A stretch of 64,000 bases of DNA from Chamaelirium japonicum (taxonomy: Eukaryota; Streptophyta; Magnoliopsida; Liliales; Melanthiaceae), in NCBI GenBank assembly GCA_947650365.1, contig CANTAL010000021.1:1364001-1428000 (forward strand), read 5' to 3'. Positions 195-58,016 of the stretch are shown here, in pieces (position 1 is the first letter of the stretch; each line of letters starts with the position of its first letter). The notes under the pieces were generated by a model that ran no database searches, had not been told where the DNA came from, and worked only from the letters and a program-made list of their open reading frames with translations. A program made the translations under genes and the position numbers.

Positions 195-272
195 TATCTC
201 TTAATATTTGAACTTAGGGCCTAAGTAATTCAGGTATGCTACTTCTTACTATCGAGCCCAGTTGACCAGTCG
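195..272 (+). repeat. Landmark A, copy 1
   Basis: A short sequence around TTAATATTTGAACTTAGGGC fused to a PBS-flank fragment (CGAGCCCAG, then GACCAGTCGTATC). It occurs only four times in the window, at about 0.2, 20.25, 38.8 and 58.0 kb, in alternating orientation, so it marks the block ends of the large inverted structure. Confidence 0.8.
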
Positions 273-1103
273 TATCTCTCTCTTCTGTCTTCGTTTATCT
301 CTTCGTTCTATTCTCTCTTCTTCTCTCTCTTCTGTGGAGTTTTGGAATTTAGATTACTTCTTACTTTATACCTGTACCCATAGCGAATGGATTGGAGAAA
401 TACTTATTTTCTCTTCTCTCTTTGGAGAGATAAGAGAGAAGAATAAAGAAAAGAACAGAGAGATAAATAAAGAGAGAAGAGAGAAGTCCTGCTCCAGTCC
501 ATTGACCACGGGTATAAGTGTGAAGTAAGAAGGAATCTAAAATCCAAAAATCCTCTTCTGTCTTTGTTTCTCTCTCCATTTCCTTATGACTGGTTGGCTG
601 GGCTAAATATTATCATACTAATAACATGTTGTAAGATGGGAGAAAGAGAGAGCCATTAAACGTCCCCTACTCTAGAGGAGTCATATATTATTTATAGGGT
701 AAGTATTGTGAGATGAGAGAAAGAGAGAGCCGTCAAATATGCCCCACCTTAAAGTTGTCATTTATTATTTATAGGGTAAGCTTACTTATGGCCTAAGCAA
801 TCTATGGGAAACCCTAATCCATGGGAGAAGAGAGAAGAGAACAAAGAGATTTAATTATATTATATGACCCCTTTAGGGTGGAGCAAGTTTGATGGCTCTC
901 TCTTTCTCCCATCTCACAACACGTTAATAAGTAAACTTAATTAATAAAATTATTTAAATTATTTAATAAATGAATAAATAGTTAATTTAATTAAAAAAAT
1001 TATAGTAATATTACTATGATAATCATAATAACGTTGATATGATACTATTGAGAAGTCGAGTTTTAGAATTTAAATTCATTCTTACTTCATACCTATACCC
1101 GTG

Positions 1104-1190
1104 ACGATAATCAATTATATATAATTAAATATTTATAAGGTAAGCTTACTAATTAAGAGAATTGATTTAATAATTATTTAAATAAATGAT
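1104..1190 (+). repeat. Landmark K, copy 1, with 14-bp palindrome
   Basis: An AT-rich stretch containing the perfect palindrome AATTATATATAATT, followed by TTATAAGGTAAGCTTACT and AATTAAGAGAATT. Four copies exist, one beside each landmark A. This copy is mirrored by 57022-57112. Confidence 0.75.
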
Positions 1191-1460
1191 TAATACAAAC
1201 TTTTTAGGGTGGGGCCCGTTAGATCTGATGGCTGTCCACCATCGGATCTCTCCCATTGATTAGGGTTTCCCATAGATTGCTTAGGCCCTAAGTAAGCTTA
1301 CCCTATAAATAATATACGATCCCTTTAGGGTGGGGCACGTTTGATGGCTCTCTCTTTCTTCCATCTCACAACACATTATCAGTACGAACATGTCGAGCCT
1401 AACCGACCAGTCACAAAAAAACGGAGAGAGAAACGAAGACAGAAAAGAGAGAAGAAGATA

Positions 1461-1925
1461 TAGTTCAAAAAATAATAATTTAAATAAATTACTATGTAAG
1501 TAAATAATTAAAAAAATTATTAAATTATTAAATATTGATTAAAATAAATAAAACAATTAATTATTTATTTAAGTAATAAAATAAAATAATAATTTAATAA
1601 CTATGTACTTATTATTTAAATAATAAGTTAATTATTTGAATATAGAAATAATAAAATATTTTCTTAAATAACTAAAATTTTTTTTAAATAATCAAATTAA
1701 TATTATTTATTTTATTATTTCAATAATAAATAAATTATTTAAATAATTTAAATATTTAGTTATATAGATAATTAAATATTTATTTACTTATTTAATTATT
1801 TAATTTATTAAAAAAATTAAATTAATTAAATAATAGGAAGTAAAGAAGGAAAATAAGGCACACTTGAATTTTTTGCTTTAAAAAGAATTTATATTTTTCT
1901 TTAAAATATTAAAAATATTACAACT
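1461..1925 (+). repeat. Short AT-rich core 1
   Basis: About 465 bp of almost pure A/T (runs of ATTTAAATAAT type), ending in the diagnostic tail with AGGAAGTAAAG, a GGCACA box and TTTGCTTTAAAAA that sits in front of LTR-like copies. Mirrored by 56298-56755. It holds no gene or stable open frame. Confidence 0.8.
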
Positions 1926-1981
1926 ATTTTGAAATCGTTCAATCGGATGGCTGTCCACCGTCCGATCTCTCTCATCTCACA
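1926..1981 (+). repeat. Internally deleted LTR-like copy
   Basis: The LTR start (ATCGTTCAATCGGATGGCTG) is joined directly to the LTR end (CATCTCACAACA) and the PBS-like stretch. The middle, including the TATA box and telo-box, is missing. The mirrored copy at 56130-56297 is complete, so the deletion is specific to this copy. Confidence 0.65.
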
Positions 1982-4489
1982 ACACGTTATCATAATGAAC
2001 ATGTCAAGCCCAACCGACCAGTCATAAGAAAACAGAGAGAAACAAAGACAGAAGAGAGAGAAGAAAAAAGAAGAGAACAGACAGATAAATAAAGAGAGAA
2101 GAGAGAAGAAGTCCTACTCTAGTCCATTCACCACTGGTATAAGTATAAAGTAAGAAAGAATCTAAATTTTAAAACTCCACTTCTCAATATTTATATGACC
2201 CCTTTAGGGTGGGGTACGTTTGACGGCTCACTTTTTATTCATCACAAAACACGTTATTAGCACAAACATACCGAGCCCAACCGACTAGTCATAAGAAAAT
2301 AGAGAGAGAAAGGAAGATAGAAGAGAGAGAAGAAGAAAGAAGAGACAGGGAAATAATCGAAGAGAGAAGATAGAAGAAGTCTTGCTCCAACCCATTGGTC
2401 ACGGGTATAGGTGTGAAGTAAGAAGAAATCTAATTAGCGTGGGGCAAGTTTGATGACTCTCTCTTTTTTCCATCTCACAATTTGTAATCAGCACGAATAT
2501 GTCGAGCCCAGCTGACCAGTCATAAGAAAACAGAGAGAGAAACAAAGACAGAAGAGAGAGAAGATGAAAGAAAAAAACAGAGAGATAAACGAATAGAGCA
2601 GAGAGAAGAAGTCCTACTCCAGTCCATTCACCATGGGTATAAGTATAAAATAAGAAGGAATCTAAATTCCAAAACTCCACTTCTCAATAATATAATTACA
2701 TCTCTCTGTTCTCTTCTCTCTTCTCCTATGGATTAGGGTTTTTCATAGATTGCTTAGGCCCTAAGTAAGCATACCCTATAAATAAAATACGACCCCTTTA
2801 GGGTGGGGCATGTTTGACGGCTCTCTTTTTCTCCTATCTAATAACATGTTATCAGCACGAATATATCAAGCCCAACCGACCAGTCACAAGAAAACAAAGA
2901 GAGAAACAAAGACAAAAGAGAAAGAAAAGAACAAAGAATTAATTATTTAAATAGTCTTTTCTCACACGGGTATAGGTGTGAAGTAAGAAGGAATCTAAAT
3001 TCCAAAACTCCAAAAACGAGAGAGAAGAAAACAGAAGAGAACGAAGAGATAAATAAAGAGAGAAGAGAGAAAAAGTCCTACTCCAACCTATTGGCCACGG
3101 GTATAGGTGTGAAGTAAGAAAGAATCTAAATTCCAAAACTCCACTTTTCATTTATACAACCCTTTTAGGGTGGGGTACGTTTGACGGTTCTCTTTTTCTC
3201 CCATCTCACAACACTTTATCAACACGAATATGTCGAGCCCCGCTGACCAGTCATAAGAAAATAGTAAGAGAAACGAAGACAAAAGAGAAAGAAGAAGAGA
3301 GAAGAGAACAGAGATATAAACAAAGAGAGAAGAGGGAAGAAGTCCTTCTCTAGTCTATTGGCCACGGGTATAGGTGTGAAGTAAGAAGGAATCTAAATTC
3401 TAAAACTCGACTTCTGTCTTCGTTTATCTCTTTGTTTTTTTGCAAGTAGTCGACTGGGCTTGATATATTCGTACAGATAACGTGTTGTGAAATAGGAGAA
3501 AGGAAGAGTCGTCAAATGTACCCCACCCTAAAGAGGTCGTATATTATTTATAGGGTAAACTTACTTAGGGCCTAAGCAATCTATAGAAAACCCTAATCCA
3601 TGGGAGAAGAGACAAGAGAACGGAGAGATTTAATTATATTATTGAGAAATGAAGTTTTAGAATTTAGATTTCTTCTTACTTCATATCTATACCCGTGGCT
3701 AATGGACTGCATCACGACTTCTTCTCTCTTCTCTTTTCATTTATCTCTCTGTTCTTCTCTCTTTTTTGTCTTCGTTTATCTCTCTGTTTTCTTGTGACTG
3801 GTCAGCTGGGCTCAACATGTTTGTGCTGATAACATGTTATGAGATGGGAAAAAGAGAGACGTCAAATATGCCCCATGCTAAAGGGGTCATATAAATATTT
3901 AGAAGTGGTGTTTTGGAATTTAGATTCCTTCTTACTTCGCACCTATACTCATGGCCATTGGACTGAAGCCTGAATTCTTCTCTCTTCTCTCTTTATTTAT
4001 CTCTCTCTTTGTTTATCTCTCTCTTCTCTTCTCTTTTCTTCTTTCTCTTCTGTCTTCGGTTCTCTCTTCGTTTTCTTGTGACTGGTCAATTGGGCTCGAT
4101 ATGCTCGTGCTGATAACGTGTTGTGCGATGAGAGAAAGAGAGAGTCATCAAACGTGCCCCACCTTAAAAGGGGTCGTATAGTATTTATAGGGTAAGATTA
4201 CTTAGGACCTAAACAATCTATCGAAAACCCTAATCTATGGGAGAAGAAAGAAGAGAACGAAGAGATTTAATTATATTAATTAGAAGTGGAGTTTTAGAAT
4301 TTAGATTTCTTTTGTCTTCGGTTCTCTCTCCGTTCTCTTCTCTATTCTTCTCTCTTCTCACTACACGTTATCAGCACAAACATGTCGAGCCTTGTTGATC
4401 AGTCACAAGAAAACAGCGTAAGAAACAAAGACGGAAAAGAAATAATGAGAGAAAAGAGAACGAAGAAATAAATGAAGAGAAAAAAAGAT
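1982..4489. repeat. Module array
   Basis: Plus-oriented modules from 1982 to about 3410 (PBS-like stretches near 1986, 2252, 2848 and 3207; a TATA-bearing core near 2776), minus-oriented from about 3411 to 4350, then plus again to 4489. Landmarks at about 2430 (linker cut short, followed by ATTAG) and 2945 (linker fused to a GACTATTTAAATAATT stretch) recur at 55680/55150, 40930/41455 and 17330/16795. No gene is seen. Confidence 0.85.
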
Positions 4490-4645
4490 AAATAAAATAT
4501 TTTTCATACTCATAAATTTATATAAATTATTTAAATATTTAAATTATAACATTAAGATGATATAATTTAAATATTTAAAGAAATAATATATTTTATAATA
4601 TTTAAGAAAATATTAATTAAAATAAATAAAATAAATAAGTAATCT
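4490..4645 (+). repeat. Landmark D, copy 1
   Basis: An AT-rich insert between modules. It starts after a degenerate polypurine tract with CTCATAAATTTATATAA and ends AAATAAGTAATCTC. Six copies exist: three plus in the left arm (4.5, 9.5, 15.7 kb) and three minus in the right arm (42.3, 47.8, 53.5 kb), pairing as mirror images. Confidence 0.8.
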
Positions 4646-5374
4646 CCTATCTTATAACACGTTCTCAGCACGAACATATCAAGCCCAACAGACCAGTCAC
4701 AAAAAAACAGAGAGAGAAACAAAGACAGAAGAGAGAGGAGTACAAAGAAGATAATGGAGAGATAAATAAAAAGAGAAGAGAGAGAAAGTCCTACTCCAGT
4801 CTATTCGGCACGGTTATAGGTGTAAAGTAAGAATAAATCTAAATACCAACACGCCACATCTCAATAATATAATTAGATCTCTCTGTTATCTTCTCTCTTC
4901 TCCCATGTATTAAGGTTTCCTATAGATTGCTTAGGCCCTAAGTAAGCTTTCCCGATAAATAATATATGACCCCTTTAAGGTGAGGCACGTTTGACGGCTC
5001 TCTCTTTTTTCCATCTCACAATATATTATCAACACGAATATGTCGAGCCCAGCCGACCAGTCATAAGAAAATGGAGAGAAAAACAAAGACAGAAGAGAGA
5101 GCAGAAGAGAGAAGAGAACGAAGAGATAAACAAAGAGAAAAGAGAGAAAAAGTCCTACTCTAATCCATTGGCCACAGGTATATGTGTGAAATAAGAAGGA
5201 ATCTGAATTTCAAAACTCCACAGAAAAGAGAGAAGAAGAGAGAAAAGAACAGAGAGATAAATGAAGAGAAAAGAGAGAAGAAGTCCTACTCAAGTCCTTT
5301 GGCCATGGGTATAGGTGTGAAAAAAGAAGGAATCTAAATTTCAAAACTCTACTTCTCAATAGTATCATCTTAAT
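4646..5374 (+). repeat. Module array, plus
   Basis: Plus-oriented modules with PBS-like stretches near 4660 and 5028, a TATA-bearing core near 4950, and two consecutive polypurine-plus-linker units (5060-5220 and 5222-5360). The open frame here is a translated polypurine tract. Confidence 0.85.
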
Positions 5375-6267
5375 GTTATTATGATTATCATAATAATGTT
5401 ACAATAACTTTTTTAATTAAATTAATTAATTATTTAAATATTATATAATTTAATAATTTAAAAATTTTAATAAATAATTTTTTAGTAAAATAAGTAATTT
5501 ATTTACTTATTTAAATATTTAATTAAATTTATTATTTTATTTATTTATTTATTATTATATTATTAAATAGTTAAACAAGGTAACTATTTATTTATTTAAA
5601 TTATTAAATAAATAAATAATAATTAAATTATATATTTAATTAATTATTGTTTTATTAGTTATTTCATAAAATTTTATTTTATATTTAAATAATTAAATAA
5701 TTAGTTAATTATTGAAATATTTAAAAACTTATTTAGTGAAGAAATATATTAAATAGATTATTTACTAAAACAAATAAATAATTTAATTATTAAAGAATTT
5801 TATAGTTAAATAAAAAATAATAAAGTAAATTTTTATATTGTTAAATAATAAAATAATTATTTTATTAAATTATGAAATATTAATTACAATTAATTAAAAA
5901 ATTAATTATTTAATTAAGTAATAAAATAAAAAAATAATTCAATAACTATTTACTAATTATTTAAATAATTAGTTAATTATTTGAATATATATATATATAT
6001 AATAATTTTTTTTTAATTTAATAATTATTTTTTTAAATAACAAAATAAATATTTATTTATTTTAATATTTGAATAATAAATAAATAATCTAAATAATTTA
6101 GTTATTTAATTATATATTTAAATAAATATTTATTTAATTATTTAATTTATTAAACTTATTAAATTAATTAAATAATAGGAAGTAATGAAAGAAGATGAGT
6201 CACACCCAAATTTTTTACTTTAAAAATAATTTATATTTTTATTTATAAAAATTTAAAACATTACAAC
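5375..6267 (+). repeat. Long AT-rich core 1
   Basis: About 890 bp of A/T-dominated sequence. It starts after the TATGATTATCATA border, includes a pure (AT) run near 5983-6001, and ends with the AGGAAGTAA/TTTACTTTAAAAA tail against an LTR-like copy. It mirrors 51826-52690. I see no coding potential. Confidence 0.85.
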
Positions 6268-6492
6268 TGTTATGAGATCGTTCGATGGAAAGGCTATCTA
6301 TCATCGGATCTCTCCCATGGATTAGTGTTTCCCATAGATTGCTTAGGCCTTAAGTAAACATACCCTAAAAATAACATACGACCCCTTTTCCATAGAATGC
6401 TTAGGCCCTAAGTAAGCTTACCCTATAAATAATATACGTCCCCCTTAGGGTAGGGCTCGTTTGACGGCTCTCTCTTTCTTCTATCTCATAAT
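6268..6492 (+). repeat. LTR-like element copy, complete, with internal duplication
   Basis: It starts TGTTATGAGATCG and ends just before a PBS-like stretch. At 225 bp it is longer than the usual 168 because the segment around the leader-proximal box (CCATAGA...TGCTTAGG) and the TATA region is present twice. A TATAAATAATATACG box sits at 6423-6437. The same duplication is in the copies at 10904 and 46210. Confidence 0.7.
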
Positions 6493-9474
6493 ATGTTGTC
6501 AGCACGAATATGTCAATCCCAGCTGACCAGTCACAAGAAAACGGTGAAAGAAAGAGAGATAGAAGAGAGAGAAGAGAAAAGAGAATGAAGAGATAAACGA
6601 AGAAAGAAGAGAGAAGAAGTCTTACTCCAGTCTTTTGGCCACGGGTATAGGTTTGAAATAAGAAAGAATCTAAAGTCCAAAACTCCACATCTCTATAATA
6701 TAATTAAATCTCTTCATTCTTTTCTTTCTCTTATCTTACAACACGTTGTCAACACAAAAATATTGAGCCCAATCAACCAGTCATAAGAAATCGGAGAGAG
6801 AAACGAAGACAAAAGAGAAAGAAGATGAAAGAAGAGAATGGAGAGATAAACAAAGAGAGAAAAGAGAAGAAGTCCTGCTCTAATCCATTGGCCATGGCTA
6901 TATATGTGAAGTAAGAAGGAATCTAAATTCTAAAACTCCACTTCTCAATAGTCATATCTCAACATTATTATGACTATCATAGTAATGTTACTATAATTTT
7001 TTTAATTAAATTATTTATTTATTTAATTATTAAATAGGTATACAGTAAGAAGGAATTTAAATTCCAAAACTTCACTTCTCAATATTTATACGACTCCTTT
7101 AGGGTGGGGCACGTTTGATGGATCTTTCTTTATCCCATCTCACAATACGTTATCAGCACGAATATGTCAAGCCCTGCCAACTAGTCACAAGAAAACGAAG
7201 AGAGAAATAAAGACAGAAGAGAGAGAAGAAGAGAGAAAAGAACTAAGAGATAAACAAAGATAAAAGGAGAAGAAGTCCTGCTCCAATGCATTGGCCACTG
7301 GTATAGGTGTGAAGTAAGAAGGAATCTAAATTCCAAAACTCCACAGAAGAGAGAAAAAGAGCGAAGATAACGGAAAGATAAATAAAGAGAGAATAAGTCC
7401 TTCTCCAGTCCATTATCCACGGGTATAGGTGTGAAGTAAGAAGGAATCTAAATTCCAAAACTCCACTTCTAGCTTTGTTTATCTCTTATTTCTCTTCTCT
7501 CTTCTTCTCTCTCTTCTGTGTAGTTTTGGAATTTAGATTCCTTCTTACTTTACACCTATACCAGTGGCAAATGGACTGGAGTAGGACTTCTACTCAAATC
7601 TATTGACTACGGGTATAGGTGTAAAGTAAGAAGGAATCTAAATTCAAAAACTCCACAGAAAACAGAGAAAAAGAGAAAAGAGAACGGAGAGATAAATGAA
7701 ATAAGAAGAGAGAAGAAGTCCTGCACCAAGTCATTGGCTATGGGTATAGGTGTGAAGTAAGAAGGAATCTAAATTCCAAAACTTCACTTTTGTCTTTGTT
7801 TCTCAATCCGTTTTTTTACTACTGGTCAGTTGGGCTCAACATATTCGTACTGATAACGTGTTGTGAGATAAGAGAAAGAGAGAGCCATCAAACGTGCCCC
7901 ACCCTAAAGGGGTCATAAATTATTTATTATTTATAGGGTAAGCATATTTTAGGCCTAAGCAATCTATGATAAACCATAATCCGTGGGAGAAGAGAGAAAA
8001 GAATGGCGAGAGTAAATTATATCATTGAGAAGTAGAGTTTTGGAATTTAGATTACTTCTTACTTCACATATAAATCCATAGTTAATGGACTGGAGCAGGA
8101 CTTCTTCTCTCTTTTGTCTTCATTTATCTCTCCGTTCTCTTCTCTCTTATTCTCTCTTCTGACTTTGTTTCTCTCTCCGTTTTCATGTAACTAGTCAGTT
8201 GGGCTTGACATGTTCCTGCTGATAACGTATTGTGAGATGGGAGAATAATAAAGCCATCAAATATGCCCCACCCAAAAGGGGTCGTATAAATATTAAGAAG
8301 TTGAGTTTTGGAATTTAGATTCCTTCTTACTTCACACCTATACCCATGGCCAATGGCCGAGAGCAGGACTTCTTCTCTCTTCGTTTATCCTTTCGTTCTC
8401 TTCTCTCTTTTTCTCACTCTTCTATCGTCGTTTCTCTCTCTTCTGTCTTTATTTTTCTCTCTGATTTTGTATGACTGGTAGGCTAGGCTTGATATATTCG
8501 TGCTGATAATGTGTTGTAAGGTGGAAGAAAGAGAGATCCATCAAATATGCCCCTTCCTAAAGGTGTCATATAAATATTGAGAAGTAAAATTTTGTAATTT
8601 AGATTCCTTCTTACTTCACACCTATACCCGTGGCTAATGGACTGGAGCAGGACTTCTTCTCTTTTCATACTGATGATATAAGTATAATTTTTTAAATTAA
8701 ATTAATTATTTATTAATTATTTAATTAAAACAAAGAGAGTTTTGGAATTTACTATGATAATCATAATAAAATTGAGATGGTACTATTGAGAAGTGGAGTT
8801 TTGGAATTTAGATTTCTTCTTACTTCACACCTATACACATGGCGAATAAACTGGAGCAGTACTTCTTATCTTTTCTCTCTTCATTTATCTCTCTATTCTC
8901 TTCTTTTTTATTCTTTCTCTTTTGCCTTTGTTTTTCTTTCCATTTTCTTATGACTCCTCGGCTGGTCTAGATATGTTCGTGTTAATAAAGTATTGTAAGA
9001 TGGGAGAAAGAGAGAGCCGCCAAATATACCCCACCCTAAAGGGGTCATAAATTATTTATAGGGTAAACTTACTTAGGGCCTAAGCAATCTAGGTAAAACC
9101 TAAAATAATTTTAAAATAGTATCATCTCAATATCTAAACCCTTGGCGAATGGAGAAGAGAGACGAGATTTAATTATATTATTGAGAAGAGAGAAGAGAAT
9201 GAAGAGATTTAATTATATTATTGATAAGTAAAGTTTTGGAATTTAGATTCCTTCTTACTTTACATATATACCCTTGGCGAATGGACTGGAGTAAGACTTC
9301 TCTCTTCTCTCATCATTTATCTTTCTGTTATATTCTCTCTTCTCATAACATGTTATCAGCATGAACATATCGAACCCAACCGACCAGTCACAAGAAAACA
9401 ATACGAGAAACGAAGACAAAAAAGAGAGACGAAGAGAGAAGAGAACGGAGAGATAAATAAAGAAAAAAAAGAGA
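6493..9474. repeat. Module array
   Basis: Plus-oriented modules to about 7790 and minus-oriented from about 7790 to 9320, forming a large foldback; a short plus block follows. An AT-rich border fragment lies at 6950-7040. A border copy at 8690-8790 carries the TATGATAATCATA palindrome and mirrors 48480-48560. No gene is seen. Confidence 0.85.
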
Positions 9475-9655
9475 AATAAAATAATTTTCATGCTCATAAA
9501 TTTATATAAGCTATTTAATAATTATGTAATGTTTTATAATTTAATATTTAAATAATAACATTGAGATGATACTATTTAAATATTTAAAGAAATGATATTC
9601 TTTATAATATTTAAAGAAATATTAATTGAAATAAATAAAATAAATAAGTAATCTC
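9475..9655 (+). repeat. Landmark D, copy 2
   Basis: Same AT-rich insert as at 4490-4645, in the same orientation. Mirrored by 47672-47859. Confidence 0.8.
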
Positions 9656-10009
9656 CCATCTCACAATATATTATCAGTCTAAACATATCGAGCCCAGCAG
9701 ACCAGTCTCAAAAAAACATAAAAAGAAACGAAAACAGAAGAGATTATAGGAGTGAGAAGAGAATGGAGAGATAAACAAAGAGAGAAGAGAAAAGAAGTCC
9801 CGCTCCAGTCCATTCGCCAAGGGTATAGGTGTGAAGTAAGAAGGAATCTAAATTCCATAACTCCACAGAAGATAGAGAATAAGAGAGAAGAGAACGGAGC
9901 GATAGATGAAGAGAGAATAAAGAAGAAGTCTTGCTCAAGACCATTGGCCTGGGTATTGGTGTGAAGTAAGAAGGAATCTAAATTCCAAAACTCAACTTCT
10001 CAATAGTAT
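9656..10009 (+). repeat. Module array, plus
   Basis: A PBS-like stretch near 9668 is followed by two polypurine-plus-linker units and then the AT-core border. The open frame here is translated polypurine sequence. Confidence 0.8.
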
Positions 10010-10903
10010 CATCTCAACATTATTATGATTATCATAGTAATGTTAAAAAAAAAAATTTAATTAAATTAATCATTTATTTAATTATTAAATAATTTAATAA
10101 TTTAAATAATTTAATAAATAATTTTTAAGTAAAAAATTTAATTTTTAACTTATTTAATTATTTAATTTATTTATTTATTATTATATTACTAAATAATTAA
10201 ATTATAAAACAATTTAATTATTTAAATTATTAAATAAAGAAATTTTGATTTAATAATATAATTTATTTATTTATTTATTTTGTAAATTATTTTCTAAAAT
10301 ATTATTTTACTTTTAAATAATGAAATAATTAGTTAATTATTTAAATATATAAAAACTTATTTAGTGAATAAATATATTAAATAGAATATTTACTAAAAAA
10401 AATAAATAATTTTATTATGAAATAATTTTATTATTAAATAAATAATAATAAAATAAATTATTATATTATTAGATAATTAATAATTAATTTATTAAATTAT
10501 TAAATATTAATTAAAATTAATAAAAAATTTATTTAATTAAGTAATAAAATTAAAATATAATTTAATAACTATTTAATTATTATTTAAATAATTAGTTAAT
10601 TATTTTAATATATAAATAATAAAATATTTTTTAAAAAAACATTATATTTTTTTAAAATAATCAAATAGATATTTTTTTTATTTTAATATTTAAATAATAA
10701 ATAAATTGTTTAAATAATTTAGTTATATAATTATATAGATAATTAAATATTTATTTAATTATTTAACTATTTAATAATTTCATTTATTAAACTAATTAAA
10801 TTAATTAAATATTAGGAAGTAAAGAAGTAAGATGAGGTAACCCGAATTTTTTATCTTAAAAATAATTTATATTTTTCTTTAAAAAAATTTAAAATATTAC
10901 AAC
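10010..10903 (+). repeat. Long AT-rich core 2
   Basis: About 890 bp of A/T sequence starting at the ATTATGATTATCATAG border and ending with the AGGAAGTAAAGAAG/AAAAATAATTTATA tail. Mirrored by 46436-47310. Includes a run of TTTA repeats near 10262. No gene is seen. Confidence 0.85.
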
Positions 10904-17667: not shown

Positions 17668-17698
17668 TGTGGGTGCAAATTTTGGCAGAAGTTTACCA

Positions 17699-28659: not shown

Positions 28660-28660
28660 C

Positions 28661-47859: not shown

Positions 47860-50087
47860 TCTTCTTCTTCTTTATTTATCTTTCCGTTCTCTTCTCTCTC
47901 TTTTGTCTTCGTTTCTCGTATCATTTTCTTGTGACTGGTCGGCTGGGCTCGATATTTTCATGCTGATAACGTATTATGAGAAGAGAGAATAAAATAGAAA
48001 GATAAATAATGAGAGAAGAGAGAAGTCTTACTCCAGTCCATTCGCCAAGGGTATAGGTGTAAAGTAAGAAGGAATCTAAATTCCAAAACTCTACTTCTCA
48101 ATAATATAATTAAAACTCTTTATTCTCTTCTCTCTTCTCCCATGGATTAGGGTTTCCTATAGATTGCTTAGGCCCTAAGTAAGCTTACCCTAAAAATAAT
48201 ATATGACCCCTTTAAGGTGGGGCATATTTAGCGGCTCTCTCTTTCTCCTATCTCATAATACGTTATTAACACGAACATGTCGAGCCCAGCCAAGGAGTTG
48301 TAAGAAAACGGAAAGAGAAACAAAGACAAAAGAGAAAAAAAAAGAGAAGAGAACAGATAGATAAATAAAGTGAGAAAAGATAAGAAGTCCTGCTCCAGTC
48401 CATTCACCATGGGTATAGGTGTGATGTTAGAAGAAATCTAAATTCCAAAAATCCACTTCTCAATAGTACCATCTCAATTTTATTATGATTATCATAGTAA
48501 ATTCCAAAACTCTCTTCATTTTAATTAAACAATTAATTTAATTTAAAAAATTATAGTTATATTATCAGTATGAAAATATAAGAAGTCCTGCTCCAGTCCA
48601 TTAGCCACGGGTATAGCTGTGAAGTAAGAAGGAATCTAAATTACAAAATTTTACTTCTTAATATTTATATGATACCTTTAGGAAGGGGCATATTTGATGG
48701 ATCTCTCCTTCTTCTACCTCACAATACATTATCAGTACGAATATGTCGAGCCTAGCCTACCAGTCACAAGAAAACAGAGAGAGAAATAAAGACAGAAGAG
48801 AGAGAAAAAAAGAGAAGAGAAAATGGAGAGAAAAACGACAACAGAAGAGTGAGAAAAAGAGAGAAGAGAACGAAAGGATAAACGAAGAGAGAAGAAGTCC
48901 TACTCCAGGCCATTGGCCACGGGTATAGGTGTGAAGTAAGAAGGAATCTAAATTCCAAAACTCAATATCTTAATATTTATACGATCCCTTTAGGGTGGGG
49001 CACATTTGACGGCTTTATCATTCTCCCATCTCACAATACATTATCAGCAGGAACATGTCGAGCCCAGCTGACTAGTTACAAGAAAACGGAGAGAGAAACA
49101 AAGTAAGAAGAGAGACTAAGAGAGAAGAGAACGGAAAGATAAACGAAGACAGAAGAGAGAAGAAGTCCTGCTCCAGTTCATTAACTACGGGTTTATGCGT
49201 GAAGTAAGAAGTAATCTAAATTCCAAAACTCTACTTCTCAATAATATAATTTACTCTCGTCATTCTCTTTTCTATTCTCCCACGGATTAGGGTTTACCAT
49301 AGATTGCTTAGGCCAAAAGTATACATACCCTATAAATAATAAATAATTTATGACCCCTTTTGGGTGGGGCACTTTTGATGGCTCTCTCTTTCTCTCATCT
49401 CACAACACGTTATCAGCACGAATATGTTGAGCCCAACTGACCAGTCGTAAGAAAACAGATTAAGAAACAAAGACAAAAGTGAAGTTTTGGAATTTAGATT
49501 CCTTCTTACTTCACACCTATACCCATAGCCAATGACTTGGAGTAGGACTTCTTCTCTCTTCTTATTTTATTTATCTCTTTATTCTCTTTTCTCTTCTTCT
49601 TTCTTTTTTGTGGAGTTTTTGAATTTAGATTCCTTCTTACTTCATACCTATACCCATGGTCAATAGACTTGGGCAGGACTTCTTCTTTCTTCGTTTATCT
49701 CTCCATCCTCTTCTTTCTTCTTCTTTCTCTTCTGTCTTCGTTTCTCTCTCTGTTTTCTTTTGACTGGTCTGCTGGGCACTATATATTCGTACTAATAACG
49801 TGTTGTGAGATGGGAGAAAGAGAGAACCGTCACCGTGCCGTACCCTAAAGGGGTTGTATAAATATTAAGAAGTGGAGTTTTATAATTTAGATTCCTTTTT
49901 ACTTCACACCTATACCCGTGGCGAATGACTGGAGTAGGACTTCTTATCTCTTCTTTCTTTGTTTATCTCTCTATTCTTTTCTCTTTTTTTCTCTCTCTTT
50001 TGTCTTTATTTCTCTCTCTGTTTTCTTGTAACTAGTCGGTTGAACTCGACATATTCAAGCTGATAACGTGTTGTTAGAAGAGAGAAG
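47860..50087. repeat. Module array
   Basis: Plus from about 47990 to 49490, then mostly minus. The AT border near 48480-48560 mirrors 8690-8790. No gene is seen. Confidence 0.85.
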
Positions 50088-50150
50088 GAAACCTAAATAA
50101 AATATTTTAAATCTCTCTAGTTTTAATAATTAAATAGAAGTCTGTCCTTA
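50088..50150 (-). repeat. Landmark H, copy 3
   Basis: Same orientation as 44688-44750. There is no counterpart near 8 kb in the left arm, so this copy belongs to a right-arm-specific duplication of about 0.75 kb. Confidence 0.7.
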
Positions 50151-51657
50151 TCTTCTCTATCTTTTGTGGAGTTTTGGAATTTAGATTCCCTTTTACTTTA
50201 CGCTTATACCCATGGCCAATGGACTTGAGTAGGATTTTTTCTCTCTTTTCTTTTCGTTTATCTCTACATTCTCTTTTCTATTCTTCTCTCTCTTCTCTGT
50301 TCTCTTCTCTCTTATTTTCTCTCGTCTGTGGAGTTTTGGAATTTAGATTCTTTCTTACTTCACACCTATACCCGTGGCCAATGGACTAGAGCATGACTTC
50401 TTCTCCCCTTCTCTCTTGGTTTAACTATCTATTCTCTTATCTCTTCTACCTAAATAATTTGATTAAATAATATAATTATTTAATTAAGAGAGAAGCAAAG
50501 ATAGAAGAAAAGAAAAAGAGAGAAGATAATAAAGAGATAACCAAAGAGGGAAGATAGTAGAAGTCCTACTCCAGTCCATTTGCCACAGATATAGGTATGA
50601 AGTAAGAAGGAATCTAAATTCCAAAACTATACAGAAGAGAAAGAAGAAGAGAGAAGAGAACGAAGAGATGAACGATGACAGAAATGGAGTTTTGGAATTT
50701 AGATTTTTTTTCTTACTTCACACCTATACCCATGGATAATGGACTGGAGCAGGACTTATTCTCTCTCGATTTATCTTTCCGTTATCTTCGCTTTTTTTCT
50801 CTCTTCTGTGGAATTTTGGAATTTAGATTCCTTCTTACTTCACACCTATACCCATGGCCAATGGATTAGAGCAGAACTTCTTCTCCTTCAATTTTTGTTT
50901 ATCTCTTAGTTCTTTTCTCTTTTCTTCTCTCTCTTCTGTCTTTATTTCTCTCTTCGTTTTCTTGTGACTAGTTAGCAGGGCCTGACATATTCATGCTGAT
51001 AACATATTGTGAGATGGGATCAAGAGAGATCCATCAAATGTGCCCCACCCTAAAGGGGTTGTATAAATATTGAGAAGTGAAGTTTTGGAATTTAGATTCC
51101 TTCTTACTTCATACCTATTTAATAATTAAATAAATAATTAATTTAATTAAAAAATTATAGTAATATTACTATGATAATCATAATAACGTTAAAATGAGAC
51201 TATTGAGAAGTGGAGTTTTAGAATTTAGATTCCTTCTTACTTCACATATATACCCATGGCCAATGGACTAGAGTAGGACTTCTTCTTTCTTCTCTCTTTA
51301 TTTATCTCTCCATTCTCTTCTTTCTTCTTCTCTCTCTTCTGTCTTCATTTTTCTCTCCGATTTCCTGTGATTGGTTGATTAGGCTTGAAATTTTCATGCT
51401 GATAACGTGTTGTGAGATGGGAGAAAGAAAAGAATGAAGAGATTTAATTATATTATAGAGATGTGGAGTTTTGGACTTTAGATTCCTTCTTATTTCATAC
51501 CTAGACCCATGGCCAAAAGACTGGAGTAGGACTCCTTCTCTCTTTTTTCTCCGTTTATCTCTTCATTCTCTTTTCTCTTCTCTCTCTTCTATCTCTATTT
51601 CTTTCTCCGTTTTCTTGTGACTGGTCGGCTGGGCTTGATATATTCGTACTGATAACA
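50151..51657. repeat. Module array
   Basis: Mostly minus modules with one plus segment (50500-50680) and an AT border near 51120-51190. It includes the third right-arm copy of the AATATAATTATTTAATTAAG segment near 50470. No gene is seen. Confidence 0.82.
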
Positions 51658-51825
51658 TATTGTGAGTTAGGAGAAAGAGATAGCCATCAACCGAGCCCCA
51701 CCCTTAAGGGGACGTATATTATTTATAGGGTAAGTTTACTTAAGGCCTAAGCAATCTATGGGAAACCCTAATCCATAGGAGAGATTCGATGATAGATAGC
51801 CTTCCCATCGAACGATCTTATAACA
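51658..51825 (-). repeat. LTR-like element copy, complete (168 bp)
   Basis: On the minus strand starts TGTTATAAGATCG. It shares rare variants with the mirror copy 6268-6492 (ACGTCCCC after the TATA box; GGGCTCG), but lacks the internal duplication of that copy. Confidence 0.77.
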
Positions 51826-52690
51826 GTTGTAATGTCTTAAATTTTTATAAAGAAAAATATAAATTATTTTTAGAGTAAAAAATTTGGCTGTGACTTATCT
51901 TCCTTCATAACTTTCTATTATTTAATTAATTTAATTAGTTTAATAAATTAAATAATTAAATAAATATTTAATTATATATATAATTAAATAACTAAATTAT
52001 TTAAATTATTTATTTATTATTTAAAAATTAAAATAAACAAATATTTATTTTATTATTTAAAAAAATATTTATTTAATTAAAAAAAATTATTATTTATATA
52101 TTTAAATAATTAACTAATTATTTAAATAATGAGTAAATAGTTATTGAATTATTTTTTTTATTTTATTACTTAAATAAATAATTAATTTTTTAATTAATTG
52201 CAATTAATATTTCATAATTTAATAAAATAATTATTTAATTATTTACTTATATAAAAATTTACTTTATTATTATTTATTTAACTATTAAATTATTTATTTG
52301 TTTTAGTAAATAATCTATTTAATATATTTCTTCACTAAATAAGTTTTTAAATATTTCAATAATTAACTAATTATTTAATTATTTAAAAATAAAATAAAAT
52401 TTTATAAAATAACTAATAAAAAAATAATTAATTAAATATATAATTTAATTATTATTTATTAATTTAAATAAATAAATATTTACCTTGTTTAATTATTTAA
52501 TAATATAATATTAAATAAATAAATAAAATAATAAATTTAATTAAATATTTAAATAAGTAAATAAATTAATTATTATACTAAAAAAAATTTTAATAAATTT
52601 TTTAAATTATTAAATTATTTAATATTTAAATAAATAATTAATTTAATTAAAAAAGTTATTGTAACATTATTATGATAATCATAATAACGT
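51826..52690 (-). repeat. Long AT-rich core 4
   Basis: About 865 bp of A/T sequence, mirror of 5375-6267, ending in the TATGATAATCATAATAACG border. Confidence 0.85.
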
Positions 52691-53427
52691 TAAGATGATA
52701 CTATTGAAAAGTAGAGTTTTGAAATTTAGATTCATTCTTTTTTCACACCTATACCTATGGCTAATGGACTTGAGTAGGACTTCTTCTCTCTTTGCTCTTT
52801 ATTTATCTCTCCGTTCTTTTCTCTCTTCTTCTCTCTCTTCTGTGGAGTTTTGGAATTTAGATTCCTTCTTATTTCACACATATACCTGTGGCCAATGGAT
52901 TGGAGTAGGACTTTTTCTCTCTTCTCTCTTTGTTTATCTCTTCGTTCTCTTCTCTTCTGCTCTCTCTTCTGTCTTCATTTTTCTTTCCATTTTCTTATGA
53001 CTGGTCGGCTGGGTTTGACATGTTCATGTTGATAATATGTTGTGAGATGGGAGAAAGAGAGAGCCGTCAAATGTGCCCTACCCTAAAGGGGTTATATATT
53101 ATTTATAGGGTAAGCTTACTTAGGGCCTAAGCAATCTATAGGAAACCCTAACACATGGGAGAAGAGAGAAGATAACGGAGAGATCTAATTATATTATTGA
53201 GATATGGATTATTGGAATTTATATTTCTTCTTACTTCACACCTATAACCATGGCGAATGGACTGGAGTAGGACTTCTTCTCTCTTCTCTTTTTATTTATC
53301 TCTCTATTCTCTTCTCTCTACTTCTCTCTACTTCTCTCTCTTCTGTCTTCATTTCTCTCTCTGTTTTCTTGTGACTGGTCCGGTGGGATCGACATGTTCG
53401 TACTGAGAACGTGTTATGAGATAGGAG
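52691..53427 (-). repeat. Module array, minus
   Basis: Reverse-complement counterpart of 4646-5374, with two consecutive linker-plus-polypyrimidine units and a TATA core near 53100. Confidence 0.83.
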
Positions 53428-53573
53428 ATTACTTATTTATTTTAAATAATATTTTCTTAATTATTATAAAATATATTTTTTCTTTAAATATTTAAATAGT
53501 ATTATCTCAATGTTATTATTTAAATATTTAAATAATTTATATAAATTTATGAGTATGAAATTTTTTTTATTTA
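53428..53573 (-). repeat. Landmark D, copy 6
   Basis: Inverted AT-rich insert, mirror of 4490-4645; it lacks some of the internal AT sequence of the other copies. Confidence 0.78.
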
Positions 53574-56129
53574 TCTTCTTTTCTCTTCATTTATCTTTCT
53601 ATTCTCCTTTCTCTTATTATTTCTTTTCTGTCTTTGTTTCTTACACCGTTTTCTTGTGACTGGTCAACTGGGCTCGACATGTTTGTGCTGATAACGTGTA
53701 GTGAGAAGAGAGAAGAATAGAGAAGAGAACAGAGAGATAAACCAAGAGAGAAGAGAGAAGTCCTACTCCAGTTCATTCGCTATGGGTATAGGTGTGAAGT
53801 AAGAAGAAATCTAAATTCTAAAACTCCACTTCTAATTAATATAGTTAAATCTCTTCGTTCTCTTCTCTCTTCTCCAATAGATTAGGGTTTTCGATAGATT
53901 GTTTAGGTCCTAAGTAATCTTACCCTATAAATACTATACGACTCTTTTAAGGTGGAGCACGTTTGATGAGTCTCTCTTTCCCTCATCGCACAACACGTTA
54001 TCAACACGAGCATATTGAGCCCAATCGACCATTCATAAGAAAACGGAGAGAGAACCGAAGACAGAAGAGAGAGAAGAAGAGAGAAGAGAAGAGAGAGATA
54101 AACAAAGAGAGAATAAGGAAGAATTCCTGCTTCAGTCCATTGGCCATGGGTATAGGTGTGAAGTAAGAAGGAATCTAAATTTCAAAACACCACTTCTAAA
54201 TATTTATATGACTCCTTTAAGGTGGGGCATGTTTGACGTCTCTCTCTTTTTCCCATCTCACAACACGTTATCAGTACAAACATGTTAAGCCCAGCCGACC
54301 AGTCACAAGAAAACAAAGAGAGAAACAAACACAAAAGAGAGAGAAGAACAGAGAAAATAATAGAGAGATAAACGAAGAGAGAAGAGAGAAGAAGTCGTGA
54401 TGAAGTCCAATAGCCACGGGTATAAATATGAAGTAAGAAGGAATCTAAATTCTAAAACTTTATTTCTCAATAATATAATTAAATCTCTCCGTTCTCTTAT
54501 CTCTTCTCCCATGGATTAGGGTTTCCTATAGATTGCTTAGGCCCTAAGTAAGCTTACCCTATAAATAATATACGACCTCTTTAGGGTGGGGTACGTTTGA
54601 CGACTCTCTCTTTCTCCTATTTCACAACACGTTATCTGTACGAATATATCGAGCCCAGCCGACCAGCCGCGAGAAAACATAAAGAGACATGAAGACAAAA
54701 GTAGAGTTTTAGAATTTAGATTCCTTCTTACTTCACACTTATACCCGTGGCCAATAGACTGGAGAAGGACTTCTTCTCTCTTCTCTCTTTGTTTATATCT
54801 CTGTTTTCTTCTCTCTTTTTCTTTCTTTTTTGTCTTCGTTTCTCTTATAATTTTCTTATGACTGGTCGGCAGGGCTCGACATGTTCGTGTTGATAAAGTG
54901 TTGTGAGATGGGAGAGAAAAAGAGTCGTCAAACGTACCCCACCCTAAAAGGGTTGTATAAATATTGAAAAGTGGAGTTATAGAATTTAGATTCTTTCTTA
55001 TTTCACACCTATACCCGTGGCCAATAGACTAGAGTAGGATTTCTTCTCTCTTCTCTTTTCATTTATCTCTTCGTTCTCTTCTCTTTTCTTCTCTCTCTTT
55101 TGTGGAGTTTTGGAATTTAGATTCCTTCTTACTTCACACCTATACCCGTGTAAGAAGACACTATTTAAATAATTAATTCTTTGTTCTTTTCTCTCCCTTT
55201 TGTCTTCGTTTCTCTCTTCGTTTTCTTGTGACTAGTCGGTTGGGCAAGATATGTTCGTGCTGATAATATATTATTAGATGGGAGAAAGAGAGAGCCGTCA
55301 AATATGCCCCACCCTAAAGGGGTCGTATTTTATTTATAGGGTAAGCTTACTTAGGGCCTAAGCAATCTATGAAAAACCCTAATCCATGGGAAAGAGAGAA
55401 GAGAACAGAGAGATTTAATTATATTATTAAGAAGTGGAGTTTTGGAATTTAGATTCCTTCTTATTTCATACCTATACCCATGGCGAATGGACTGGATCAT
55501 GACTTCTTCTCTTTGCTATATTCGTTTATCTCTCTGTTTTCTTCTTTCTTCTTCTTTCTCTTCTGTCTTTATTTCTCTCTTTGTTTTCTTATGACTGGTC
55601 AGCTGGGCTTGACATATTCATGCTGATAATAAGTTGTAAGATAGGAGAAAAAGAGAGTCATCAAACGTGCCCCACGCTAATTAGATTTCTTCTTACTTCA
55701 CACCTATACCAGTGGCCAATGGGTTGGAGCAGGACTTCTTCTATCTTCTCTCTTTGTTTATTTCCCTATCTCTTCTCTCTTCTTCTCTCTCTTTTATTTT
55801 CCTTTCTCTCTCTGTTTTCTTATGACTGGTCAGTTGGGCTCGGTATGTTCGTGCTAATAACGTGTTTTGGGATGAAGAAAAAGTGAGCCGTCAAATGTAC
55901 CCCACCCTGAAGGGGTCATATAAATATTGATAAGTGGAGTTTTGGAATTTAGATTCTTTCTTACTTTATACTTATACCAGTGGTAAATGGACTAGAATTT
56001 GACTTCTTCTCTCTTCTCTCTTTATTGATCTCTCCGTTCTCTTCTTTTTTCTTCTCTCTCTTCTGTCTTCGTTTCTCTCTGTTTTCTTGTGACTGGTCAG
56101 TTGGGCTCGATATGTTCATGCTGATAACG
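53574..56129. repeat. Module array
   Basis: Plus to about 54690, then minus. Landmarks near 55150 and 55680 match 2945 and 2430. No gene is seen. Confidence 0.85.
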
Positions 56130-56297
56130 TGTTGTGAGATAAAAGAAAAAGAAATCCATCAAACGTGCTCCACTCAAAAGGGGTCATATATTATTTATAG
56201 GGTAAGCTTACTTAGAGCCAAAGCAATCTATAGGAAATCCTAATCCATGGGAGAGATCCGATGGTGGACAGCCATCCGATCGAACGATCTCAAAACA
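56130..56297 (-). repeat. LTR-like element copy, complete (168 bp)
   Basis: On the minus strand starts TGTTTTGAGATCG and ends next to a PBS-like stretch. Its mirror (1926-1981) has lost the middle. Confidence 0.77.
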
Positions 56298-56755
56298 GTC
56301 GTAATATTTTTAATTTTTTAAAGAAAAATATAAATTTTTTTAAAGCAAAAAATTCAGGTGTGCTTCATCTTCCTTCTTTACTTCCTATTATTTAATTAAT
56401 TTAATTTTTTTAATAAATTAAATAATTAAATAAATATTTAATTATCTATATAAATAAATATTTAAATTATTTAAATAATTTATTCATTATTTAAATAATA
56501 AAATAAATAATATTAATATGATTATTTAAAAAAAAATTAAGTTATTTAAAAAAACATTTTATTATTTATATATTCAAATAATTACCTTATTATTTAAATA
56601 ATAAGTAAATAGTTATTAAATTATTATTTTATTTTATTACTTAATTAAATAATTAATTTTTTTATTTATTTCAATAAATATTTCATAATTTAATAAATTT
56701 TTTTAATTATTTAATTATATAGTAATTTATTTAAATTATTATTTTTTGAACTATA
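56298..56755 (-). repeat. Short AT-rich core 4
   Basis: About 458 bp of A/T sequence with the inverted tail. Mirror of 1461-1925. Confidence 0.8.
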
Positions 56756-57935
56756 TCTTCTTCTCTCTCTTCTTTCTTCATTTCTCTCTCCGTTTTTTTG
56801 TAACTGGTCGGTTGGGCTCGACATGTTCGTACTGATAATGTGTTTTGAGATTGAAGAAAGGGAGAGCCATCAAACGTGCCCCACATTAAAGGGATCGTAT
56901 ATTATTTATATGGTAAGCTTACTTAGGGCCTAAGCAATCTATAGAAAACCTTAATCCATGGGAGAGATTCGATGGTGGACAACCATCCGATCTATCGTGC
57001 CCCACCCTAAAGGGGTCGTATTAATCATTTATTTAAATAATTATTAAATCAATTCTCTTAATTAGTAAGCCTACCTTATAAATATTTAATTATATATAAT
57101 TGATTATCGCCACGGGTATAGGTATAAAGTAAGAAGGAATTTAAATTCTAAAACTCCACTTCTCAATAGTAGCATCTCAACGTTATTATGATTATCATAG
57201 TAATGTTACTATAATTTTTTAATTAAATTATTTATTTATTTATTTATTAAATAATTTAAATAATTTAATAATTAAATTTACTAATTAACGTGTTGTGAGA
57301 TGGGAGAATGAGAGAGCCATCAAACTTGCTCCACCCTAAAGGGGTCGTATAATATAATTAAATCTCTTCGTTCTCTTCTCTCTTCTCCCATAGATTAGGG
57401 TTTCCCGTAGATTGCTTAGGCTATAAGTAAGCTTACCCTATAAATAATAAACGACCACTTTAAGGTGGGGCACATTTGATGGCTCACTCTTTTTCTCATC
57501 TCACATCACTTACCCTATAAATAATATATGACCCCTTTAGAGTAGGGCACATTTATGGCCCTTGTTTTCTCCCTTCCCACAACATGTTATCAGTACGATA
57601 ATATTTAGCCCAGCCGACCAGTCACAAGAAAATGGAGAGAGAAACAAAGACAAAAGAGGAGTTTTGGAATTTAGATTCCTTCTTACTTCACACTTATACC
57701 CGTGGTCAATGGACTGGAGCAGGACTTCTCTCTTCTCTCTTCATTTATCTCTCTGTTCTTTTCTTTCTTTTTCTCTCTTATCTCTCCGAAGAGAGAAGAG
57801 AAAATAAGTATTTCTCCAATCCATTCGCCATGGGTATAGGTATGAAGTAAGAAGTAATTTAAATTCCAAAACTCCATAGAAGAGAGAGAAGAAGAGAGAA
57901 TAGAATGAAGAGATAAACGAAGACAGAAGAGAGAG
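56756..57935. repeat. Module array with landmark K
   Basis: A minus module with a truncated LTR-like copy, landmark K at 57022-57112, AT border near 57175-57230, then plus and mixed modules. Reverse-complement counterpart of 0.27-1.45 kb. Confidence 0.82.
57022..57112 (-). repeat. Landmark K, copy 4
   Basis: Inverted copy with AATTATATATAATT; mirror of 1104-1190. Confidence 0.75.
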
Positions 57936-58016
57936 ATATGACTGGTCGCTGGGCTCGATAGTAAGAAGTGGCACACCCGAATTGCTTAGGCCCTAAGTTC
58001 AAATATTAAGAGATAC
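57936..58016 (-). repeat. Landmark A, copy 4
   Basis: CTAAGTTCAAATATTAAGAG with the PBS-flank fragment; mirror of 195-272. Confidence 0.8.

What the first reader, a model, noticed from the sequence alone, without database searches (positions are those of the whole stretch)
195..58016. Giant imperfect inverted repeat: 0.2-23.76 kb mirrored by 34.87-58.0 kb
Landmarks pair as reverse complements at nearly constant sums. Pairs in kb: 0.40/57.80, 1.11/57.10, 2.43/55.68, 2.95/55.15, 4.55/53.50, 8.73/48.53, 9.56/47.77, 13.34/44.72, 14.95/43.11, 15.70/42.35, 16.80/41.46, 17.33/40.93, 18.68/40.41, 19.54/39.55, 20.25/38.83, 21.57/36.97, 22.47/36.08, 23.757/34.872. AT-core size order is also mirrored (short, long, long, short in both arms). 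Short stretches compared by eye are roughly nine-tenths identical. A mirrored block of this size built wholly from one repeat system is unusual. Both arms lie in one sequence, so misassembly must be excluded.
Basis: seen in the sequence. Interest (0 to 1): 0.9.

Follow-up and report, generated by a model that had tools for sequence, protein, structure and literature searches.

The report
Giant repeated palindrome near chromosome ends
In a plant genome, a stretch of repeat-rich DNA is mirrored over more than 100,000 bases, and the mirrored block has relatives at many other places, often towards chromosome ends, so it is very probably a real chromosome feature and not an assembly mistake.

Summary
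The mirror is real. Arm A (window 1-23,757) and arm B (34,872-58,210) align as reverse complements over 21,635 columns at 92.3% identity; 18 of 18 reader landmarks pair within 15 bp. The window cuts the structure: with 100 kb more on each side, A runs to -43.8 kb and B to 92.06 kb (55.2 kb aligned). The arms are a mosaic of a 364-bp LTR-like unit in both orientations plus AT-rich cores; the centre holds a truncated Ty3/gypsy element. Older nested duplications (K2P 0.12-0.27) occur in both arms and predate them (0.082). The genome (1.52 Gb, plastid rbcL) is a plant's. Misassembly is very unlikely: scaffold C4, probably the allele, matches window 16-50 kb at 99.5%, and the central junction has 40 scored matches, this one and C4 included; 11 of the 40 have hits in both arms, 17 the outer B probe at 64-88 kb. 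Of 21 junction matches on large scaffolds, 16 lie within 8 Mb of an end. A solo LTR with target duplication is in C33 and C4 only among 40 matches. Best reading: a palindromic segmental duplication of distal heterochromatin, built stepwise; its spread by ectopic exchange, and any function, are inferred or unknown. New variant of a known kind.

The parts
1..23757 (+). Arm A of the inverted repeat (inner 23.8 kb; continues left of the window to about -43.8 kb, C33:1320187)
34872..64000 (-). Arm B (inner 29 kb; continues right to 92.06 kb, C33:1456063). 34872-58210 pairs with the window part of A, 58211-64000 with A left of the window
23758..29208 (-). Central spacer, part 1: decayed Ty3/gypsy fragment (part of LTR, RT, RNase H; protease below cut-off; gag only by position, no Pfam match); lacks its 3' part, and its LTR lacks the 5' end
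29225..34871 (+). Central spacer, part 2 (S): repeat array with an older direct copy at -83785..-78296 (87.5%)
17668..18483 (+). Solo LTR (TG...CA, 816 bp, 43-bp minisatellite) with target duplication ATTTA (17663-17667 / 18484-18488); absent from arm B; of 40 scored matches to its 3' junction only C33 and C4 include the LTR
31253..37212 (+). Block X, inverted partner of 58007-63982 (older duplication, K2P 0.148), spanning the inner end of arm B
58007..63982 (-). Block X', inverted copy of X
42046..50913 (+). Older tandem duplication T1 (42046-45522) / T2 (47467-50913), K2P 0.174; counterparts in arm A at about 12.0-16.0 kb and 7.2-9.9 kb
881..19794 (.). Older inverted pair N within arm A (881-3094 / 16668-19794), mirrored in arm B (39286-41924 / 54699-57331), K2P 0.12-0.15
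21628..23068 (.). Oldest layer: 1.4-kb palindrome (half-to-half K2P 0.25), also at 35574-36795 and 58288-59760 (0.26-0.27)
4786..5149 (+). Example of the 364-bp LTR-like unit (TATA-like box, ...TCTCACAACA, then a primer-binding-site-like CGTTATCAGCACGA, purine-rich tract); 62 plus and 66 minus matches to the PBS-like motif in the window
5369..6310 (+). Example of a long AT-rich core inside the composite (others 10013-10950, 46391-47319, 51783-52694; shorter, about 510 bp, at 1459, 18718, 39862, 56255)

Best explanation
The window lies inside one copy of a large palindromic macro-repeat of the distal heterochromatin of a plant. The building material is a 364-bp LTR-like unit and AT-rich cores, joined in both orientations. 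SHOWN: successive duplications piled up (1.4-kb palindromes, then 3.5-kb tandem copies and inverted copies of 2.7 to 6 kb, then the arms); copies A and B of a block of more than 57 kb stand as an inverted pair around an 11.1-kb spacer with a truncated gypsy element; parts of the block recur next to it as C and D; the central junction has 40 scored matches at 94-100% identity (this one included), 11 of them with probe hits in both arms in the same order; after the arms formed, this locus gained changes in one arm only (solo LTR, 549-bp deletion, other indels), with no sign of recent conversion. INFERRED: that the setting is heterochromatin; that the inverted and tandem copies arose by replication-based template switching or by recombination between the many inverted and direct unit copies; and that whole blocks moved between chromosomes by ectopic recombination or break-induced replication rather than by an activity encoded in the block (no gene was recognised in the window's arms; the flanks were not searched for genes).
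For: Arm alignment, ts/tv 2.04, 64 indels; arms extend outside the window, as noted before the flanks were fetched (note); in five trees, covering four older duplications, A and B copies of the same sub-block group at 100% ultrafast bootstrap; A/B/C/D distances 0.063-0.085 in five shared sections, one tree of a 3.2-kb section with (B,C) at 88%; longest identical run 115 bp against about 92 expected, dispersion 1.3-1.6 times binomial; C4:1421529-1461528 colinear with window 12.2-50.0 kb, 99.5% over the 33,675 columns of its main piece; central-junction probe: 40 scored, 40 full-length at 94-100%, C33 and C4 included; of those 40, 11 have probe hits in both arms (C33 and C4 included), and in three of the 11 the same probe hits both arms on opposite strands; a further such place on C10, outside that list; B-outer probe 64-88 kb away in 17 of 40, A-outer probe 43-56 kb away in 9 of 40, both in 8, C33 and C4 included each time; solo LTR next to the probe in C33 and C4 only, 2 of 40; plant-type plastid rbcL.
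Against: Only the C4 copy was compared base by base, and only over window 12-50 kb; other copies are known by probe position, strand and identity. Each hit list stops at 40 scored candidates out of thousands, so misses are not absences: 29 of 40 junction copies showed no hit in one or both arms. Several contigs may be alternative haplotypes of others, so independent loci are fewer than 40. A, B, C and D are nearly equidistant, and sections disagree on which pair is closest (among A, B and C it is B-C in four of five sections, by a hair in one of them, and A-B in one), so A and B need not be products of one direct inverted duplication. Five of the 21 junction matches on large scaffolds lie 11-20 Mb from an end. 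No reads or Hi-C were available. No junction shows a decisive mechanism signature.
Confidence: 0.8

Rival explanations
1. Assembly artefact: two haplotypes, or a fold-back read, joined in inverted orientation.
For: Both arms lie in one contig of 2.1 Mb that is probably unplaced; repeats of this kind are hard to assemble.
Against: 7.7% divergence with ts/tv 2, 64 indels and an arm-specific LTR insertion with target duplication; no N in 264 kb; the same architecture on the 94.9-Mb scaffold C4 at 99.5% and, by probes, elsewhere.
Confidence: 0.04
2. A single fold-back (microhomology-mediated template switch) at this very locus: a break inside the gypsy element, then copying of more than 23 kb of arm B in inverted orientation.
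For: The A/gypsy junction looks like a non-homologous join with the gypsy cut mid-element, while B and X' keep the older continuation.
Against: The same junction has 40 scored matches genome-wide, so the join is old and was copied with the block; the event, if it happened so, was in an ancestor of these copies.
Confidence: 0.25
3. A tandem array of TRIM-type miniature LTR retrotransposons: copies came by retrotransposition and the mirror is a by-product of insertion.
For: The unit resembles an LTR plus short internal part (TATA-like box...CAACA end, PBS-like and purine-rich tracts); tandem TRIM and LTR arrays are known in plants (PMC7215508, passages; PMC11899658, abstract).
Against: Retrotransposition of a 364-bp unit would not make colinear mirrored arms of 57 kb; unit orientation switches 53 times among 128 motif copies; no unit with flanking target duplications was identified, though none was systematically sought; no 5S-like match.
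Confidence: 0.1
4. The palindrome is maintained for a function (hairpin RNA and siRNA-directed heterochromatin, or a chromosome-end role), as proposed for satellite dyad symmetries in Tribolium.
For: The order of the arms recurs in 11 of 40 junction copies; analogous symmetries in Tribolium are argued to be structural (PMC13081366, passages); a small inverted repeat makes siRNA in an Arabidopsis ecotype (PMC13213937, passages).
Against: Arms diverge fairly evenly with ts/tv 2, no conversion seen, arm-specific insertion and deletion present; recurrence is explained by common descent.
Confidence: 0.12

Closest known systems
Macro-dyad symmetries of satellite DNA in Tribolium beetles (Veseljak et al. 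2026, Genome Biol 27:131, PMC13081366; passages seen, among them part of the abstract)
   Same: Tens-of-kb inverted halves made of one repeat family, repeated over the genome, with several nested levels of dyad symmetry; the longest reported there is 75 kb. The authors write that such symmetries formed by satDNA arrays had been documented exclusively in Tribolium.
   Different: Here a plant; the unit is an LTR-like mosaic with AT cores, not a homogeneous tandem satellite; mirrored span about 136 kb; arms colinear and about 92% identical as single segments; distal rather than putatively (peri)centromeric.
Palindromes of plant and animal sex-determination regions (willow, poplar, great apes, as cited in PMC9636151; passages seen)
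   Same: Large inverted repeats in plant chromosomes
   Different: Those are described as sex-linked and as allowing arm-to-arm gene conversion; here 92% identity, no conversion seen, no genes recognised in the window's arms, many dispersed copies.
Tandem arrays of TRIM/Cassandra and other LTR retrotransposons (PMC7215508, passages; PMC11899658, abstract and outline)
   Same: LTR-like unit with short internal part joined head to tail
   Different: Cassandra has a 5S-derived LTR and the PBS TGGTATCAGAGC; here no 5S match, a different PBS-like motif, both orientations, and block duplications far larger than the unit.
Subtelomeric segmental duplications and satellites of plants (khipu of bean PMC3797529, potato PMC3276127, bean subtelomeres PMC6102362; search listing and start of abstract only)
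   Same: Distal repeat blocks; ectopic exchange among chromosome ends is the usual explanation (recalled)
   Different: A palindromic unit of more than 100 kb; I saw no title of such a case in the listings, most of which showed only the top 12-20 papers

Membership tests
Macro-dyad symmetry of repeat arrays (Tribolium type) | Inverted subarrays of one repeat family, kb to tens of kb | tested here: met
   Arms of 57 kb and more; unit-like sequence covers 158.7 of 264 kb
Macro-dyad symmetry of repeat arrays (Tribolium type) | Homogeneous tandem satellite monomers of one orientation within each half | tested here: not met
   Orientation switches 53 times among 128 PBS-like motifs; the unit is a mosaic
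Macro-dyad symmetry of repeat arrays (Tribolium type) | Recurs at many loci with conserved inversion site | tested here: met
   Central junction: 40 scored matches, this one included; hits in both arms in 11 of 40
TRIM / LTR retrotransposon (the 364-bp unit) | LTR with TG...CA ends, PBS, PPT, short internal domain | tested here: inconclusive
   CAACA end, TATA-like box, PBS-like and purine tract seen; LTR start and tRNA match not established
TRIM / LTR retrotransposon (the 364-bp unit) | Target-site duplication around single insertions | not tested
   No isolated copy of the unit was examined
Cassandra | 5S rRNA-like sequence in the LTR and PBS TGGTATCAGAGC | tested here: not met
   Rfam gathering scan of the window: 0 matches; the motif reads CGTTATCAGCACGA
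Gene-converting palindrome of sex chromosomes | Arms near-identical, conversion tracts | tested here: not met
   92.3% identity, longest identical run 115 bp against about 92 expected
Distal segmental duplication | Blocks shared by several chromosome ends | tested here: met
   Junction probe: 21 of 40 matches on large scaffolds (C1, C2, C3, C4, C7), 8 within 3 Mb, 8 at 3-8 Mb and 5 more than 8 Mb from an end; the three other arm and junction probes: 19 of 40 (10/7/2), 18 of 40 (9/4/5), 24 of 40 (12/6/6)
Distal segmental duplication | Adjacent to telomere repeats | not tested
   Telomere ends not examined

The most novel reading that the evidence does not exclude
A palindromic macro-repeat of more than 100 kb, with no gene recognised in its central arms, spreads as a unit among non-homologous chromosomes of a plant, its mirror architecture being the thing that is copied: dyad-symmetric heterochromatin would then be an independent plant counterpart of the symmetries that one 2026 paper states were documented only in Tribolium, and possibly favoured for its symmetry.
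Probability: 0.25. Interest if true: 0.7.

Novelty: new variant of a known kind. Interest (0 to 1): 0.5.

Why it matters
Palindromes of this size are easily taken for assembly errors. Here the mirrored block recurs on several scaffolds, so its age, growth and spread can be read from one genome: a layered record of inverted and tandem duplications and a later dispersal. It gives a plant system in which to test whether large dyad symmetry in repeat-rich DNA is a by-product of rearrangement or is itself maintained, and it warns that removing palindromes in assembly could delete real sequence.

Tried and rejected
My first model was a single fold-back template switch at this locus, with the break inside the gypsy element (noted). 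Its implication that the arms continue beyond the window came true, but its claim that the A/gypsy junction is private was refuted: 40 scored matches share it. Gene conversion between arms: no sign. Cassandra/5S and tRNA-derived repeats: Rfam 0, ARAGORN 0 in the window. Exact motif in prokaryote and viral collections: 0 and 0. A paper search for the PBS-like letters listed two papers on other subjects, not opened. A weak holin-family Pfam match to a low-complexity frame (60088-60729, E 0.006) and a glycoprotein K match to a gypsy frame (E 0.004), both below cut-off, are dismissed as chance. Only 10 frames were scanned against Pfam, two of them in the arms; introns were not considered. Papers: passages of PMC13081366, PMC7215508, PMC8091179, PMC9636151 and PMC13213937 were seen, the abstract and outline of PMC11899658, and one reference-list passage of PMC13427858; all others only as search listings with the start of the abstract. 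That I saw no dispersed plant palindrome of this size in print rests on the listings, most of them capped, and on the quoted sentence of PMC13081366; plant sex-region palindromes are in print (PMC9636151).
Full report
OBSERVATION. Self-comparison of the window gives a colinear chain of inverted matches between 0-23.8 kb and 34.9-58.2 kb. A global alignment of arm A with reverse-complemented arm B has 21,635 aligned columns at 92.3% identity, ts/tv 2.04, K2P 0.082, and 64 indels. 18 of 18 reader landmarks fall within 15 bp of their aligned partners. The colinear 16-mer chain (6095) exceeds the direct orientation (1326) and each of 40 block shuffles (max 2860), so order and orientation, not only shared repeats, are mirrored. 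There is no N in the window.

ANATOMY. No gene was recognised in the arms: the ORF list of the window holds 10 frames of 100 aa or more, the longest 211 aa and within the central gypsy; two arm frames were scanned against Pfam without a match over cut-off; split genes were not sought. The material of the arms is a cyclic 364-bp unit with a TATA-like box, an LTR-like end ...TCTCACAACA followed by CGTTATCAGCACGA, and a purine-rich tract; 11 complete units average 83.8% identity, and 189 tiles of the unit cover 46.8 of 64 kb. PBS-like motifs number 62 plus and 66 minus, with 53 orientation switches against 64 expected if shuffled. One inverted junction between unit parts occurs 29 times in the window, both arms counted, which suggests that it was copied, not remade. 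AT-rich cores of about 0.5 and 0.9 kb lie within composite units. That these motifs are a PBS, a TATA box and a PPT is recalled knowledge of LTR elements, not a database match.

CENTRE. 23,758-29,208 is a decayed Ty3/gypsy fragment on the minus strand: RT (RVT_1, E 1.7e-13), RT-RNase H (4.3e-11), a second RNase H-like domain (RVT_3, E 1.1e-6), and an aspartic protease below cut-off; two frames in the gag position had no match. Fuller copies nearby show that the element continues past 23,758 and that its LTR continues past 29,208, so both ends are cut. At the inner end, B and X' share the older continuation, whereas A passes into the gypsy.

LAYERS. Distances order the duplications: 1.4-kb palindromes 0.25-0.27; tandem copies 0.16-0.19; inverted X 0.148; inverted N 0.12-0.15; arms 0.082. 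In five trees, on four of these older duplications, the A and B copies of each sub-block group at 100%: the smaller duplications were there before the arms split. With a recalled plant LTR rate of 1.3e-8 per site per year the arms would be about 3 million years old; the rate of this species is unknown.

AFTER THE SPLIT. An 816-bp solo LTR (TG...CA) sits in A at 17,668-18,483 with the 5-bp target duplication ATTTA; B has the empty site. The 549-bp gap at A 20,296 is best read as a deletion in this A arm and in C4: eight copies on C43, C171, C57, C3 and C47 show a spacing 546-560 bp longer. The longest identical run is 115 bp, slightly above the roughly 92 expected, and dispersion is 1.3-1.6 times binomial: no clear recent conversion.

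BEYOND THE WINDOW. The window is C33:1364001-1428000 of a 1.52-Gb assembly with 3253 contigs. With 100 kb added on each side the arms run from 23,757 to -43,813 and from 34,872 to 92,063; outside the window another 33,567 columns align at 92.35%, 55.2 kb in all. A 7-kb piece (-36.5 to -29.6 kb) is in A and not in B. From 92,071 a third copy C repeats pieces of B 65.6-84.0 kb in direct orientation, split by two LTR-type insertions; from 155 kb pieces of a fourth, D, are inverted to C, up to the end of the fetched sequence. Shared sections are nearly equidistant: in the 7.3-kb section A-B 0.084, A-C 0.077, B-C 0.066, and C-D 0.063 in another; in one section (y) A-B is the closest pair (0.072), in another (r3) A-C and B-C are equal.

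HOST. The assembly holds many rbcL matches: 131 scored out of 604 candidates; on C265, C337, C340 and C367 two of them lie 154.6-154.8 kb apart on one strand, about one plastid genome. The protein is a RuBisCO large chain whose best PDB relatives are (species recalled) of flowering plants. I did not identify the species.

OTHER COPIES. C4:1421529-1461528, on a 94.9-Mb scaffold, is colinear with window 12.2-50.0 kb; its main piece (16.3-50.0 kb) has 99.5% identity over 33,675 columns and includes the solo LTR. Six probe positions run parallel on C33 and C4 over 0.87 Mb, so C33 is probably the other haplotype of the start of C4. The probe across the A/gypsy junction has 40 full-length matches at 94-100%, itself and C4 included (40 of 4871 candidates scored). 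The probe across the gypsy/S junction is full-length in 10 of 40; in the other 30 its two halves match 340-402 bp apart, which I read as the intact LTR end, so the window's version would be a derived deletion shared by 10 copies. Of the 40 junction copies, 11 have probe hits in both arms, three of them with the same probe in both arms on opposite strands (C3 93.99 Mb, C57 1.38 Mb, C7 81.72 Mb); C10 59.1 Mb is a further such place, though its A/gypsy junction is not in the list. 17 of 40 have the B-outer probe at 64-88 kb on the same strand (10 of them on the large scaffolds C1, C2, C3, C4, C7), 9 have the A-outer probe, 8 both, C33 and C4 included. For the probe at the solo LTR's 3' end only C33 and C4 match in full; the other 38 of 40 begin at the LTR's edge, as an empty site would, and some of these are B-type arms.

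PLACE. On large scaffolds (nine with known length) the junction matches number 21 of 40: 8 lie within 3 Mb of a scaffold end, 8 between 3 and 8 Mb, and 5 (on C1 and C2) 11-20 Mb inside; the other 19 are on other contigs. 'Distal' is therefore fair, 'subtelomeric' too narrow.

READING. The mirror is a copied architecture. Misassembly is very unlikely. Stepwise duplication is shown by the layers; ectopic exchange between chromosomes is inferred from the distribution and from embedded features, such as the truncated gypsy, that travel with the block. Which recombination process made each copy is not shown. The nearest described thing that I found is the macro-dyad symmetry of Tribolium satellites (PMC13081366, passages), whose authors state that it had been documented only in that genus; this plant block shares the large dyad symmetry and its recurrence but not the homogeneous satellite make-up, and so is filed as a new variant, not as a member.

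LIMITS. Hit lists are capped at 40 scored candidates, some contigs may be alleles of others, and only one copy besides this one was read base by base, in part.

Noticed in passing
C33:1505272-1519137 (window coordinates 141272-155137; L026-L028): A gypsy-group LTR element, 13.9 kb, whose two LTRs match over 707 bp at 100%, with target duplication GTGCT, inserted in the PBS-like motif of the repeat unit: a very recent insertion.
   Followed up: partly
C33:1461100-1467964 (window coordinates 97100-103964): Another LTR element of the same group, LTRs 96.6% identical, target duplication ATATT; it splits copy C.
   Followed up: partly
window coordinates 108623-110418 and 116451-118245 (outside the window, in C33 right flank): Two 1.8-kb direct repeats, 94.5% identical, about 7.8 kb apart: possibly the LTRs of a third element.
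   Followed up: no
L001-L008 against window coordinates -87351..-84807: Eight copies on C14, C180, C36, C4, C3, C80 (two) and C43 are 96.5-99.6% identical to each other but 92.3-92.9% to the C33 copy: a separately and more recently spread subfamily.
   Followed up: partly
17699-17954 and 29127-29209: A 43-bp GC-rich minisatellite inside the LTRs of the gypsy group, about six units in the solo LTR, two in the central fragment.
   Followed up: no
window coordinates 142114-144621 (inside the young gypsy element): A tandem array with self-match offsets of 161, 279, 358, 518 bp and more.
   Followed up: no
C3:93014739, 93185060, 93985406: Three copies of the block carry about 10 kb extra between the two gypsy junctions, possibly one shared insertion.
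   Followed up: no
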